Notes under the pieces: model-generated | Seen by the model: only the letters and a program-made list of their open reading frames with translations | Told to the model about the DNA's origin: nothing | The model's database searches: none | Made by a program: the position numbers and the translations under genes | Shown: piece after piece, positions 1,963 to 25,044 of the stretch | How the letters are laid out: each line of letters begins with the position of its first letter | Numbering within the stretch: position 1 is the stretch's first letter | Origin: Acidobacteriota bacterium | Lineage (GTDB): Bacteria; Acidobacteriota; Holophagae; Holophagales; Holophagaceae | Assembly: GCA_018269025.1 (NCBI GenBank) | Contig: JAFDVN010000147.1 | Span: forward strand, 1-38,575 | Length of the DNA: 38,575 nucleotides | Direction: 5' to 3'

Positions 1963-1997
1963 CCCGGCTTCCGGCTTCCGGCTACGGGCTTCAACCT
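1963..1997. repeat. 7-bp-period repeat between divergent recO and Spy-like genes
   Basis: Consecutive heptads on the plus strand read GGCTTCC, GGCTTCC, GGCTACG, GGCTTCA. The array sits 13 bp from the recO start codon and 48 bp from the other start, so it occupies much of the shared promoter space. Confidence 0.75.
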
Positions 1998-4742: not shown

Positions 4743-6659
4743 TTGCCCGCCATCGCCCTCAGCCTCGTTCAAGCCACCAAGCGCTACGGCGTCCGCGCCA
4801 TCCTGGACGGCCTCTCCTTCGGCCTCATGCAAGGCGAGAAGGTCGGTCTCATTGGCCGCAACGGCGCGGGCAAGAGCACGCTCTTCAAGCTCATCTCCGG
4901 CGAAGATCATCCAGACGAGGGGGAGGTCATCCTCACCGGCGGCCTCAGCGTCGCGCGGCTTTCCCAGGAGCCGGACTTCGAGCGGGATGCGACGGTGCGA
5001 GAGGCGCTGGAGTCGGCCTTGGCGGATCATCGCGCGCTGCTGGAACGCCACGCGGCCATCCACGACGCCTTGGCGAAGGAGGACTCCACCAAGCTTCACG
5101 AAGAGTTGGAGGCCATCGAGCACCGCCTCCACCACCTCGGCTGGGATCTCGCGCCGCGCATCCAGGCGGCCGCGACCTTCTGGGGGCTGGACGACCTGAA
5201 TGCGAAGGTCGCCGCCCTATCCGGCGGTTGGCGCAAGCGCGTGGCCCTCGCCCAAGCGTGGCTGCGTCAGCCGGAAGTGCTCGTATTGGACGAGCCCACG
5301 AACCACCTCGACCCCGATCAGGTGGAGAAGCTCCAAGCCTGGCTCCAGACCTTTCCTGGCGCGCTCCTCCTCATCACCCACGATCGCCAGCTTCTCGATG
5401 CCGTCGTGGATCGCATGGTGGAGCTGGAGAACGGCAAGGCCACGAGCTACGACGGCGGCTACAGCGACTACCTGCTCCTGAAGGCCGACCAGGAGTTCCG
5501 GGAAGCGCGCCTCACGGACCACATGCAGAACCGCCTTCGCACGGAGCTGGCGTGGCTGCGGCGCGGCGCGAAGGCCCGCACCCGAAAATCCAAACTCCGC
5601 ATCGAGGAAGTGTTGGATCTCAAGGACGAAGTGGCCGACCGCACGAAGCTCGTGGCCAAACAGGCTCTCGCCTTCCAGAGTGGAAGCAACCGAAGTGACG
5701 CGCTTCTCAACGGCCGGGCCCTGACTTTCAGCTATGGCGGACCCGAACTTCTTGGCGGCCTGGACCTCGTCCTCCAACGCGGCATGCGCGTCGCACTGCT
5801 CGGCCCCAATGGATGCGGAAAGTCTACGCTGCTGAAGCTGCTGCTCGGCGAGTTGAACCCCACCGGTGGGGAGTTGAGCCGTCATCCCAAGCTCAAGATC
5901 ACCACCCTCAGCCAGGGCCGCGGCGAGCTGGATGGCGGCCGCGACCTTGCCTGGAACCTTTGTGAAGGCGCGGCGACGGTGAATTTCGGCGGCGCCATCA
6001 CGGCGACCCATGTCTACCTCTCCCGCTTCGGCTTTTCCGTGCCTGACCAGCGGCGCGACACAGCGAGCCTGAGCGGCGGCGAGCGGAACCGCCTGCTGCT
6101 CGCCAAAGCCATGCTCAGTCCCGCCGACCTGCTGGTGCTGGACGAGCCCACCAACGACCTGGACATCCCCACCCTCCAGAACCTCGAAGACGCCCTGCGG
6201 AGCTTCCCCGGCACCCTGCTCCTCGTGAGCCACGACCGCTTCTTCCTCGACCAAGTGGCGACCCATACGCTCGCCTGGCAGGCGGGCACGCCCCGCTGGG
6301 AACTCTACGAAGGCAATCCGGCGACGGTGCGGGATCTGAGGGCGGCGAGAGGGGCGGAGCAGGCGGCTACAGGCTTCCGACTCCCGGCTACCGAAATCAA
6401 ATCGAGCGCCCCGACAAAGCCCAAAAAACCCGGCCTATCTCAGAAGGAACAGCGGCGGCTCGGAGAAGTCGAAACCGCCATGGCCGGGCTCCACACCCGC
6501 ATCGAATCCCTTGACGCGATCCTCGCCGATCCCGCCGCCTTCCTCACCGCCGACGCACCCGGCCATCAGGCCCTCAAGGACCGGGATGCCGCGAAGGGCG
6601 AGCTTGAGACCCTCGAGATGGAATGGCTTGAATTGGAAGAAAAGCGGAACGAGGGTTAG
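4743..6659 (+). CDS. uup: ABC-F family ATPase, Uup-like
   Basis: A 638-residue soluble protein with two ABC ATPase domains and no membrane segment. Domain 1 has Walker A GRNGAGKST (38-46), signature LSGGW (159-163) and DEPTNHLD (about 183-190). An Arg/Lys-rich interdomain linker follows (about 230-310). Domain 2 has GPNGCGKST (354-362), LSGGE (about 442) and DEPTNDLD (467-474). The EPTNDLD form and the C-terminal coiled coil (about 565-638) point to Uup rather than EttA or YheS. ABC-F proteins act on ribosomes; Uup is linked to ribosome assembly and transposon excision. The start is TTG with GGAG shortly before. Residues about 541-551 are encoded by a period-7 repeat. Confidence 0.87.
   Translation: MPAIALSLVQATKRYGVRAILDGLSFGLMQGEKVGLIGRNGAGKSTLFKLISGEDHPDEGEVILTGGLSVARLSQEPDFERDATVREALESALADHRALLERHAAIHDALAKEDSTKLHEELEAIEHRLHHLGWDLAPRIQAAATFWGLDDLNAKVAALSGGWRKRVALAQAWLRQPEVLVLDEPTNHLDPDQVEKLQAWLQTFPGALLLITHDRQLLDAVVDRMVELENGKATSYDGGYSDYLLLKADQEFREARLTDHMQNRLRTELAWLRRGAKARTRKSKLRIEEVLDLKDEVADRTKLVAKQALAFQSGSNRSDALLNGRALTFSYGGPELLGGLDLVLQRGMRVALLGPNGCGKSTLLKLLLGELNPTGGELSRHPKLKITTLSQGRGELDGGRDLAWNLCEGAATVNFGGAITATHVYLSRFGFSVPDQRRDTASLSGGERNRLLLAKAMLSPADLLVLDEPTNDLDIPTLQNLEDALRSFPGTLLLVSHDRFFLDQVATHTLAWQAGTPRWELYEGNPATVRDLRAARGAEQAATGFRLPATEIKSSAPTKPKKPGLSQKEQRRLGEVETAMAGLHTRIESLDAILADPAAFLTADAPGHQALKDRDAAKGELETLEMEWLELEEKRNEG
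6364..6394. repeat. 7-bp-period repeat inside the uup reading frame
   Basis: Heptads GGCTACA, GGCTTCC, GACTCCC, GGCTACC follow one another here and are translated as roughly ATGFRLPAT. They fall between the second ATPase domain and the C-terminal coiled coil, where a spacer of variable sequence is tolerated. This is the same family as the intergenic arrays. Confidence 0.72.
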
Positions 6660-9920: not shown

Positions 9921-10005
9921 GGCGTCTGGCGTCAGGTTTCAGGCCACCGGCTTCTAGAAGGGAGGCCGTTCGGGAGCCGGTGGCCGGAAGCCGGGAGTCG
10001 GAATT
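9921..10005. repeat. 7-bp-period repeat with two inverted arms
   Basis: Left arm heptads: GGCGTCT, GGCGTCA, GGTTTCA, GGCCACC, GGCTTCT (9921-9955). The right arm (about 9973-10005) carries the complement. The pair GGCCACCGGCT (9942-9952) and AGCCGGTGGCC (9975-9985) is a perfect 11-bp inverted repeat. It starts four nt after the peptidase stop codon and could act as a transcript-end hairpin, though no T-run follows. Confidence 0.75.
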
Positions 10006-16236: not shown

Positions 16237-16276
16237 TGGATACAGGCTACCGGCTACCGGCTACCGGCTCCAGGCC
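16237..16276. repeat. 7-bp-period repeat between divergent pgsA and queG
   Basis: Tandem heptads GGCTACC, GGCTACC, GGCTACC and GGCTCCA follow a GGATACA unit. This is the cleanest array in the window. It fills more than half of the 72-bp gap between the two start codons, so promoter elements for both genes must overlap it or lie in the coding sequence of the other gene. Confidence 0.82.
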
Positions 16277-16305
16277 ACAGAGCGCACTACCCTATGGGGG
16301 TGGAC

Positions 16306-17244
16306 ATGTTCGCTTTCAAGGAATGGCTCCGGGCCGAGGCGCTGGCGGCGGGGTTCGCCCGGGTGGGCTTCGCGTCCTGCGAACCCTTCGCGGCCGCACC
16401 ACTGGAGGCTTGGTTCGAGGCTGGCGGCGCGCGGCACCTGCCCTACCTGGACCAAGAGACGATGTTGGATCCCCAAAAACTCTGGCCCCAGGCTAAGACG
16501 GCGCTGGTGGGGTTCTTCCCTTACGCGCGGCCTGAGGCCGTACCGGGCGCGGCGCCGGATTCGCTCAAATTGAGCCGCTACCTGTGGGGCCCGGATTATC
16601 ACGCGATCCTCAAACCCCGCCTGGCGAAGCTGCTCGCCTCCGCCCAGGAACGGCTCCCGGAGCTCGAAGGCCGGGTCTGCGTAGACACGGCACCGCTGAT
16701 GGAGCGGCCCCTCGCTGTGCGGGCGGGCCTCGGCTGGCAGGGCAAGCACACCCTTCTCATCACGGGCAAGGGCGGTTCCTACGGCTTCCTCGGCGTGCTG
16801 CTGCTCTCCGAGGAGCTTCCGCCTGACGCACCCTTCCCCACCGACCAGTGCGGTTCGTGTACGCGCTGCCTGGAGGCCTGCCCCAGCGGGGCCCTGTCGC
16901 CCTTTCGACTCGATCCCAACCGCTGCCTGACCACCTACACCATCGAGACCGAGGCGGAGCCGCCGCCGGAGGTCGCCACCGCGATCCGCGACTCCCGCTG
17001 GGCCGCCGGGTGCGACGCCTGCCAGGAAGTCTGCCCCTGGAACCGCGCGCCCCTCTGGGGCGATCCCGAGCTCTGGGGCCAGCCGAACCGCCTCCACCGG
17101 GAACCCGCTGAAACGCTTCACCTGGGATCAGCCCAATGGCGCGTCCGAACCCGCCGAACCGCCCTCCGCCGCGTCCGGGACCGCCATTGGCGGCGGACGG
17201 TGGATTTAATCCTCGGCCCAAGCGACCCGACGCCCGACGCCTGA
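16306..17244 (+). CDS. queG: Epoxyqueuosine reductase
   Basis: A 312-residue cobalamin and iron-sulphur enzyme that reduces epoxyqueuosine to queuosine in tRNA, the last step of queuosine synthesis. Two 4Fe-4S cluster motifs are visible: CGSCTRCLEACP (Cys182, 185, 188, 192) and CDACQEVCPWN later, plus the NRCLTTYTIE segment. The conserved KNTLLI-like sequence appears as GKHTLLI. ATG 16306 is chosen because GGGGGTGG lies just upstream; ATG 16294 in the same frame is an alternative adding four residues. The last codons and the stop are made of a period-7 repeat. The C-terminus lacks the HEAT-like extension of longer homologues. Confidence 0.9.
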   Translation: MFAFKEWLRAEALAAGFARVGFASCEPFAAAPLEAWFEAGGARHLPYLDQETMLDPQKLWPQAKTALVGFFPYARPEAVPGAAPDSLKLSRYLWGPDYHAILKPRLAKLLASAQERLPELEGRVCVDTAPLMERPLAVRAGLGWQGKHTLLITGKGGSYGFLGVLLLSEELPPDAPFPTDQCGSCTRCLEACPSGALSPFRLDPNRCLTTYTIETEAEPPPEVATAIRDSRWAAGCDACQEVCPWNRAPLWGDPELWGQPNRLHREPAETLHLGSAQWRVRTRRTALRRVRDRHWRRTVDLILGPSDPTPDA

Positions 17245-17259
17245 CGCCTGATGCCTGAG
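17226..17259. repeat. 7-bp-period repeat overlapping the queG stop codon
   Basis: Units CCCGACG, CCTGACG, CCTGATG, CCTGAGC run across the end of queG. The queG stop TGA (17242-17244) belongs to one unit, and each of the following units offers another TGA. The encoded tail is about DPTPDA. Confidence 0.78.
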
Positions 17260-23742: not shown

Positions 23743-25044
23743 TCACCACCGGTCCTGGACGGTCTTGCCGGCTTCCGCGTGCTGAAGCGCCTTGAGGCCG
23801 ATGTCCTTCCGGGCCTGCATGCCGGGCCAGGCGACCTCCGCGAGATCGCCTTCCGCCTTCTTCCGCGCCTCCGCCAAGGTAGGCGCGCTGGTGGCGAGGT
23901 TCAGCACCCGGCCACCGTTCACCGTCCACCGACCTTCGACCTTCTTCGTCCCCGCGTGGATGATCGCGCACTTCGGTGCCTTGATCTCGATGGGCACGCC
24001 GGTCTTCGGGCGATCCGGGTAGCCTTCGGCCGCGAGCACCACGGTGATGGCGCAGCCAGGCTTCACCTTCACCGCATTCTGATCAAGGCTCCCCTTGGCG
24101 ACCGCCAGCAGGAGCGCCGCGAGATCCTCATCCAAGAGCTGCATGAGCACCTGGGTTTCTGGATCGCCGAAGCGGCAGTTGTATTCCAGGAGCTTGGGCC
24201 CCTCCGCCGTCCACATGACGCCGAGAAAGAGGACCCCGCGCCCCACGAGGCCATCCTTCTGCAGGCCGCGCACGGTGGGCTCCACCAGTTCCTTACGCAT
24301 GCGCTCCGTGTCCTCGGCTCGCACGAATGGAATCGGACCGAATACACCCATGCCGCCGGTGTTCGGGCCTTTGTCGCCTTCGAAGATGCGCTTGTGGTCC
24401 TGGCAGGCGGGCAGCATCAGGTAGGAAGCGTGATCCGCGTCCACATCCACGAGTACATGGAGGCTCAGCTCCATGCCCAGGAGCGGTGCTTCCAGGACGA
24501 CCGTCTTCGAAGCCTCCCCGAAGGCGCCATCCAGGAAAGCCCGAAGGGTATCGAGGGCCTCGGCTTCGGTTTCGGCCAGGACCACGCCTTTGCCGGCGGC
24601 GAGGCCATCGGCCTTGAGGACGATGGGCAGGCCCCAGGCCCAGTTCCGGATCACCGCTTCCCCCGAGGCCCAATCGCCCACGGTCACGGAGGCCGCGGTT
24701 GGAAGGTCGTGGCGTTCCATGAAGTCCTTTGCGAAGGCCTTGGAGCCTTCGAGCCGTGCCGTGGCCGCACCGTGACCGAAAACCGGAATGCCAAGGGCGC
24801 GCACGGCATCCGCCACGCCCGCCACCAGCGGGGCCTCCGGACCGATGACGACGAGATCCGGGCGATTGGCCGCGCACCAACCGGCGACCGCCTTGGGGTC
24901 CGCCGCATCCATCGCGACCCGGGCTCCAAGTTCCGCCAGGGCATCGCTCCCCGGGGCGGAGACGAGATCCACACCCGACCTCTCCTTGAGCTTGAGCGCC
25001 AGGGCGTGTTCACGGCCACCGGAGCCGAGGAGCAGGATCTTCAT
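23743..25044 (-). CDS. purD: Phosphoribosylamine-glycine ligase (GARS)
   Basis: A 433-residue ATP-grasp enzyme that joins glycine to phosphoribosylamine in step two of purine synthesis. The N-terminal [15 protein letters not shown] motif binds the substrate. The ATP-grasp part includes the [13 protein letters not shown] loop and the metal-binding [12 protein letters not shown]. Length is typical. ATG 25044 follows GGAGG at good spacing; a longer frame from 25089 would lack a proper start context. It is divergent from the tonB iron operon across 91 bp. Confidence 0.95.

What the first reader, a model, noticed from the sequence alone, without database searches (positions are those of the whole stretch)
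6364..6394. Repeat of the intergenic family inside uup
The array falls exactly in the tolerant linker before the C-terminal coiled coil of an otherwise conserved ATPase and keeps the frame. It encodes a short spacer. This suggests insertion or expansion, so the linker length may vary among strains and affect Uup action.
Basis: partly seen in the sequence, partly recalled or inferred. Interest (0 to 1): 0.5.

Follow-up and report, generated by a model that had tools for sequence, protein, structure and literature searches.

The report
Heptad repeat inside a Uup linker
A short seven-base repeat that is scattered between the genes of this bacterium also sits, in frame, inside a floppy linker of a ribosome-associated type of ATPase and adds at most one residue to it, so it is most likely a tolerated by-product of a repeat-spreading process rather than a length switch.

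Summary
Window 6365-6392 is four heptads, GGCTACA GGCTTCC GACTCCC GGCTACC, of a GGCTNCN family dispersed between genes of this Holophagaceae MAG. It is in frame and encodes residues 541-550 of a Uup-like ABC-F ATPase. AlphaFold gives pLDDT below 50 at 542-563; the C-terminal domain starts at 565. Chance is unlikely: 5 of 4000 synonymous shuffles of uup make such an array.

The linker is 40 residues here and 39 in 35 of 50 sequences read, so the array adds one residue at most. None of the other 49 carries it. Uup of another genus (G055) has a different heptad array (CAAGTCY) as a 51-nt in-frame insertion in another turn; same-genus G058 lacks it. An ABC-F paralogue of G055 has such an array in its own C-terminal linker. 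So arrays do enter genes, and in-frame copies in disordered segments persist.

Best reading: a probably neutral in-gene member of a known kind, intergenic heptanucleotide repeat arrays (Xanthomonas, Nostoc, Beggiatoaceae). The spreading mechanism is unidentified; Y1 transposases and reverse transcriptases do not track it.

The parts
4743..6659 (+). Uup-like ABC-F ATPase gene (638 aa), host of the array
   Evidence: two ABC_tran stretches, ABC_tran_Xtn, ABC_tran_CTD; best NCBIfam hit Uup, 466 bits, below its cut-off of 900
6365..6392 (+). four-unit heptad array GGCTACA GGCTTCC GACTCCC GGCTACC (codons 541-550, AATGFRLPAT)
6366..6431 (+). predicted disordered linker (residues 542-563, pLDDT below 50)
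6435..6641 (+). ABC transporter C-terminal domain, residues 565-633, mostly helical in the model
1966..1993 (+). intergenic heptad array of the same family
9972..9999 (-). intergenic heptad array of the same family, includes the GACTCCC unit
16245..16279 (+). intergenic heptad array of the same family
17228..17249 (.). heptad array of the GACGCCT flavour at the 3' end of a predicted gene

Best explanation
The tract is one copy of a heptanucleotide repeat (GGCTNCN) that this genome carries in dozens of arrays, normally within a few bases of gene ends and pointing into the spacer. Shown: family membership, frame, location in a predicted disordered linker, absence from the relatives read, at most one residue of net length, and a separate in-frame heptad insertion into the same gene in another genus. 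Inferred: heptads arise or spread by strand slippage or template switching seeded by short matches; inside genes only frame-preserving copies in disordered loops and linkers escape selection; in this uup the copy overwrote, or entered with the loss of, an equal length of linker because linker length is under selection. The resulting AATGFRLPAT spacer is probably neutral for Uup.
For: Dispersed family: 97 exact three-unit matches against 10 control; 56 period-7 arrays in 431 kb; lags 4, 5, 8, 10, 11 give 0-1, lags 9, 12, 15 give 14, 7, 7 and lag 14 gives 33, same threshold. Position: median 7 bp from the nearest predicted gene, 63 of 69 within 50 bp, 60 of 69 pointing away from it. Coding depletion: exact three-unit arrays 49 in 44.8 kb intergenic against 2 in 337 kb deep coding. 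Linker. Arrays inside genes: G055 Uup has 51 nt more than same-genus G058 at 80% DNA identity, and 48 of 50 sequences have the shorter 25-residue stretch; MoaC of this genome is 6 residues longer at an array than its same-genus orthologue; an ABC-F paralogue of G055 carries about eight heptads in its C-terminal linker. Length constraint: 35 of 50 linkers are exactly 39 residues.
Against: The nearest relative is only about 73% identical in Uup, so the event at this site cannot be watched. Length neutrality sits awkwardly with plain slippage, which changes length in steps of seven. The aminotransferase array is also length-neutral, and its relatives already have a peptide close to what heptads encode, so convergence of codon choice is possible there. 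The orthologous ABC-F linker of G059 shows a decayed array in the same register and of equal length, so some in-gene arrays may be old. Slippage itself was not tested.
Confidence: 0.75

Rival explanations
1. One reading: the array is a length-variable spacer (steps of seven codons) that tunes Uup action among strains.
For: Frame is kept and the site is a linker before a coiled-coil domain. Unit number varies among arrays of the genome. G055 Uup is 17 residues longer at a heptad insertion.
Against: The linker here is one residue above the mode. Of 49 relatives read one differs by seven residues and it has no heptads. The G055 insertion is in a different turn, and 17 residues is not a multiple of seven. 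Strains of this species were not available.
Confidence: 0.06
2. A transposable element (MITE, REP or Rickettsia-palindrome-like) inserted in frame; heptads are its ends.
For: 34 of 59 neighbouring intergenic array pairs face each other, and 16 that I picked share core ends GGCTACRCGGTTGG...CCAACCGCGTAGCC.
Against: The uup copy is a lone array with no inverted partner or core nearby. In G033, G031 and G043, 7 of 17 array groups are facing pairs and none encloses that core. With two mismatches the core-end pattern is no commoner than its control, 60+42 against 46+50. Y1_Tnp is absent from G000, G031 and G033, though present in G043 and G055; RVT_1 is absent from G000, G043 and G055, though present in G031 and G033. 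No target-site duplication is obvious at the G055 insertion (by eye).
Confidence: 0.1
3. Chance: GC-rich low-constraint linker codons happen to look like the repeat.
For: 5 of 4000 synonymous shuffles of uup give such an array, because the peptide permits it. The linker peptide is under weak constraint.
Against: 0 four-unit arrays in 20 shuffles of 337 kb coding against 2 seen. Rare codons are used. The peptide that permits it is in none of the other 49 sequences. Four other arrays lie in the same window.
Confidence: 0.05
4. A conserved functional Uup linker motif.
For: None found.
Against: None of the 49 relatives read carries the peptide or the array.
Confidence: 0.01

Closest known systems
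Heptameric G-rich repeats of Xanthomonas (GGGAATC) and Nostoc (GGGGA(C/T)T), Rehm et al. 2015, PMC4692102 (abstract, introduction and passages read)
   Same: Seven-base degenerate units, dispersed, mostly intergenic. They sit within 50 bp of gene ends, on the sense strand after stops and the antisense strand before starts (here 37 of 43 and 23 of 26). A minority overlap genes there (11% in Xcc, 7% in Xac, more in Nostoc).
   Different: The unit GGCTNCN has only GG runs, so the quadruplex of longer G runs proposed there does not fit this flavour. There is no sharp peak at four units. One genome of the family, G055, has a further alphabet that the other 76 lack.
TAACTGA direct repeats of Beggiatoaceae, MacGregor 2015, PMC4679880 (passages read)
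   Same: Heptamer arrays, intergenic, patchy across taxa, close relatives may have none, no spreading mechanism known.
   Different: There a single unit whose related heptamers are rarely repeated, mostly just upstream of start codons; here a variable unit with arrays at both gene ends.
Rickettsia palindromic elements (recalled; only a search listing seen)
   Same: Short repetitive DNA that enters protein genes in frame at tolerated sites.
   Different: Those are, as I recall, palindromes of about 100-150 bp; the uup tract is a 28-nt direct array without a palindrome.
Variable linkers and CTD extensions of ABC-F ATPases, PMC6723617 (passages read)
   Different: Heptad repeats do not appear in the passages read.

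Membership tests
Bacterial heptanucleotide repeat arrays | period of seven bases, several tandem units | tested here: met
   four units in uup; period-7 excess in the genome sample
Bacterial heptanucleotide repeat arrays | dispersed in the genome and mostly intergenic | tested here: met
Bacterial heptanucleotide repeat arrays | near gene ends, sense after stop and antisense before start (Rehm et al.) | tested here: met
   for intergenic copies; the uup copy is inside a gene
Bacterial heptanucleotide repeat arrays | preference for four units | tested here: inconclusive
   intergenic matches 31 of three, 33 of four, 18 of five units; some arrays match on both strands and count twice
Quadruplex-forming heptad repeats | runs of three or more G in each unit | tested here: not met
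   GGCTNCN has runs of two G; the G055 flavour GGGACTT has three
REP/RAYT or other Y1-transposase elements | palindromic unit plus a Y1 transposase in the genome | tested here: not met
   no Y1_Tnp in G000 (only 76% complete), G031 or G033; the uup array has no inverted partner
Uup (NF050005) | score over the curated cut-off | tested here: not met
   466 bits against 900
ABC-F with Uup-type C-terminal domain | two ABC_tran domains and ABC_tran_CTD over its cut-off | tested here: met
   CTD 45.1 bits against 32

The most novel reading that the evidence does not exclude
An unidentified activity writes heptad alphabets, partly genome-specific, into DNA with fixed polarity outward from gene ends, and can overwrite sequence without changing its length. 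ABC-F proteins are repeatedly hit (Uup here, Uup and a paralogue in G055), so heptads act as a source of new in-frame linker peptides.
Probability: 0.12. Interest if true: 0.7.

Novelty: new member of a known kind. Interest (0 to 1): 0.33.

Why it matters
Intergenic heptad arrays are known from several phyla, but their origin is open. Here 62 of 77 genomes of one family lack exact GGCTNCN triplets, one genome has a further alphabet that 76 lack, and two alphabets have entered the same gene in frame at different tolerated places. Array-rich and array-poor genomes of one genus, such as G055 and G058, make the question of how heptads arise directly testable. It also shows a route by which non-coding repeats become protein linkers.

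Tried and rejected
Y1 transposase (13 of 77 genomes; G043 and G055 have it, G000, G031 and G033 do not) and reverse transcriptase (23 of 77; G031 and G033 have it, G000, G043 and G055 do not) as the spreading enzyme: neither tracks the five array-rich genomes. Rfam on six loci with paired arrays: only a tRNA at gathering thresholds. A longer element with the core ends: in the listed matches (102 in all, the first 100 or so listed) facing core ends lie about 40-115 bp apart, none at insertion-sequence distance; with two mismatches the pattern is no commoner than its control. Base-pair co-evolution of the two arms (51 pairings, 147 unit pairs): free positions agree more than dealt at random (positions 4 and 7: 0 of 1000 shuffles reach it; 5: 6; 2: 44), but about as much as neighbouring units of one arm (36-47% against 44-47% at positions 5 and 7), so a conserved hairpin is neither shown nor excluded.

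Slips and limits. One search read minus-strand loci unreversed (redone); one search missed two orthologues through too strict a pattern (redone). Gene calls are my own ORF-plus-codon-bias calls, not annotation. The 431 kb sample of this genome was chosen because it holds arrays listed, so densities are not genome averages. One search dropped 10 arrays inside genes and 9 without a gene on both sides before its counts. The reversed-pattern control can itself hit other heptad alphabets (G120, G132, G155). Of 77 family genomes, 50 Uup sequences, own included, were read; of the other 27, six had a full-length match that I did not fetch, the rest showed fragments or no match of that rank. G000 is 76% complete, so absences in it are weak.

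Full report
What is there. At 6365-6392 (+) the window reads GGCTACA GGCTTCC GACTCCC GGCTACC, inside the 638-codon ORF 4743-6659. The ORF encodes a Uup-like ABC-F protein: two ABC_tran stretches, ABC_tran_Xtn and ABC_tran_CTD at residues 565-633. NCBIfam ranks Uup first but below its cut-off, 466 against 900 bits. The array covers codons 541-550, AATGFRLPAT. AlphaFold2 with 16 sequences gives mean pLDDT 82.7 and pTM 0.47; one of its two segments below 50 is 542-563, between helix 526-542 and the C-terminal helices 567-594 and 606-637. The organism is a Holophagaceae MAG, judged from names: 8 of the 9 nearest Uup records are labelled Holophagaceae, one Bacillota.

Is it more than chance? The family is dispersed through the genome. 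Exact matches to three GGCTNCN units (overlapping ones counted) number 50 forward and 47 reverse, against 4 and 6 for the reversed pattern. In 431 kb of this genome chosen for holding arrays, period-7 arrays number 56 at a threshold where lags 4, 5, 8, 10 and 11 give 0-1; lags that are multiples of three give 3-14 and lag 14 gives 33. Exact three-unit arrays number 49 in 44.8 kb of intergenic and 2 in 337 kb of deep coding DNA; four-unit arrays with at most one mismatch number 39 and 2, and 0 in 20 rounds of synonymous shuffling. Shuffling uup alone gives such an array in 5 of 4000. Four of the ten codons are rare (GCT twice, ACA, CGA), yet 16 of 626 windows of uup are as rare or rarer.

The family. 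Of arrays with three or more units in that sample, 69 have predicted genes on both sides; 10 inside genes and 9 at stretch edges were set aside. The 69 sit a median of 7 bp from the nearest gene, 63 within 50 bp. After stops 37 of 43 are on the sense strand and before starts 23 of 26 are on the antisense strand; 60 of 69 point from the gene into the spacer. This is the placement that Rehm et al. (PMC4692102; abstract, introduction and passages read) describe for heptads of Xanthomonas and Nostoc. Of 59 neighbouring array pairs 34 face each other, though some of the rest are one array matched on both strands. Sixteen pairs that I picked share core ends GGCTACRCGGTTGG...CCAACCGCGTAGCC. With up to one mismatch the core-end pattern has 20 listed matches, nearly all at such pairs; with two it is no commoner than its control, 60+42 against 46+50. 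In G033, G031 and G043, 7 of 17 array groups are facing pairs and none encloses that core; by eye several enclose hairpins, in L306 one followed by a T run as in a terminator. So the pair looks like a consequence of placement, not proof of one element.

Distribution. In 77 family genomes GGCTNCN triplets occur in 15, with 44 or more matches in five: G000 97, G031 86, G033 117, G043 44, G055 124, with controls of 10, 12, 1, 8 and 14. In 297 genomes drawn from the phylum 51 have a match and 13 have 20 or more; of these G206 has 37 against 16 control, and three genomes without matches have 19-36 control matches, probably another alphabet. A second alphabet, AAGTNNC, has 49 matches in G055, none in the other 76 family genomes, and 5 control matches in all; G055 has both alphabets. 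Y1 transposases occur in 13 of 77 genomes, G043 and G055 among them but not G000, G031 or G033. Reverse transcriptases occur in 23 of 77, G031 and G033 among them but not G000, G043 or G055.

I read 50 Uup sequences, own included, from the 77 genomes. From YEG to LSQKE the length is 34 in 1, 37 in 2, 38 in 4, 39 in 35, 40 in 7 and 46 in 1; own is 40. The stretch from SHDR to the YEG motif is 25 in 48, 24 in own and 42 in G055. In these 50 segments only own has a GGCTNCN array (three or four units, at most one mismatch) or the peptide, and only G055 has a strict period-7 tract. The one 46-residue linker (G058) is seven residues above the mode, but its extra 21 nt are not heptads. So length variation in seven-codon steps by heptads is not seen, and the array here replaced about its own length.

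Do arrays enter genes? Yes. Uup of G055 (another genus) has CAAGTCY heptads in 51 nt more than same-genus G058, 80% identical in DNA, in the turn NGAG/TPLWELYEG. In G055 an ABC-F paralogue carries about eight heptads in its own C-terminal linker; its G059 orthologue, 84% identical in DNA and of equal length, shows a decayed version in the same register, while G056 and G057 do not show it clearly. In this genome MoaC is six residues longer at an array than its same-genus orthologue; 29 relatives were aligned and one, G053, has a smaller extra stretch there. An aminotransferase carries three exact heptads with no length change against its three closest relatives, whose peptides already read (S/T)GFHLP, so convergence of codons is possible. 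Other copies overlap gene ends.

Mechanism. Shown: dispersed family, edge placement with polarity, patchy occurrence, a genome-specific second alphabet, in-frame presence in a predicted disordered segment, one insertion with an empty counterpart. Inferred: heptads grow and move by slippage or template switching at short matches, and selection keeps only frame-safe copies. MacGregor (PMC4679880, passages read) and Rehm et al. mention the proposal that heptamers favour polymerase slippage; I did not test it. Length neutrality in uup is the least explained point: equal loss under selection for linker length (35 of 50 at exactly 39) or direct overwriting are both open.

Effect on Uup. [quoted passage not shown] With nearly unchanged linker length and predicted disorder, a change in Uup action is not expected; it was not tested.

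Verdict. A real, in-frame, in-gene member of an intergenic heptad repeat family; new member of a known kind, probably neutral. Among the papers listed by searches (listings of 2 to 25, from up to 381 papers) no title dealt with such repeats in Acidobacteriota; that is no proof of absence from print.

Noticed in passing
L096:5302-5456, L079:5118-5248, L098:942-1081 and 13 more rows of A1: Facing heptad pairs around shared core ends GGCTACRCGGTTGG...CCAACCGCGTAGCC, some with an inner GTCAGCCTACGA...TCGTAGGCTGAC hairpin; no Rfam match in the six loci searched, no longer copy seen.
   Followed up: partly
L304-L308, L313-L315: In G033, G031 and G043 heptad arrays stand on one or both sides of hairpins between genes; in L306 and L308 the hairpin is followed by a T run as in a terminator (by eye).
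   Followed up: partly
L272:2044-2108: About eight CAAGTCY heptads in the C-terminal linker of a second ABC-F protein of G055; the G059 orthologue has a decayed copy in the same register.
   Followed up: yes
L080:2422-2449: Heptad array inside MoaC of this genome with six extra residues against the same-genus orthologue.
   Followed up: yes
window 23913-23944: Another period-7 tract (CACCGTTCACCGTCCACCGACCTTCGACCTTC) inside a predicted gene on the minus strand; not checked against orthologues.
   Followed up: no
L280:2325-2426: A predicted G055 gene without a Pfam or NCBIfam match carries two different heptad arrays in a proline-rich stretch.
   Followed up: no
L272-L283: G055 has several further heptad alphabets (GATTGAC, AATCGNA, GACTCTC, CCCACAG).
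   Followed up: no
G120, G132, G155: Three genomes of one genus elsewhere in the phylum hit only the reversed control pattern (19, 34 and 36 matches), which suggests yet another heptad alphabet there.
   Followed up: no
L160 (G058): Uup linker seven residues longer than the family mode without heptads.
   Followed up: partly
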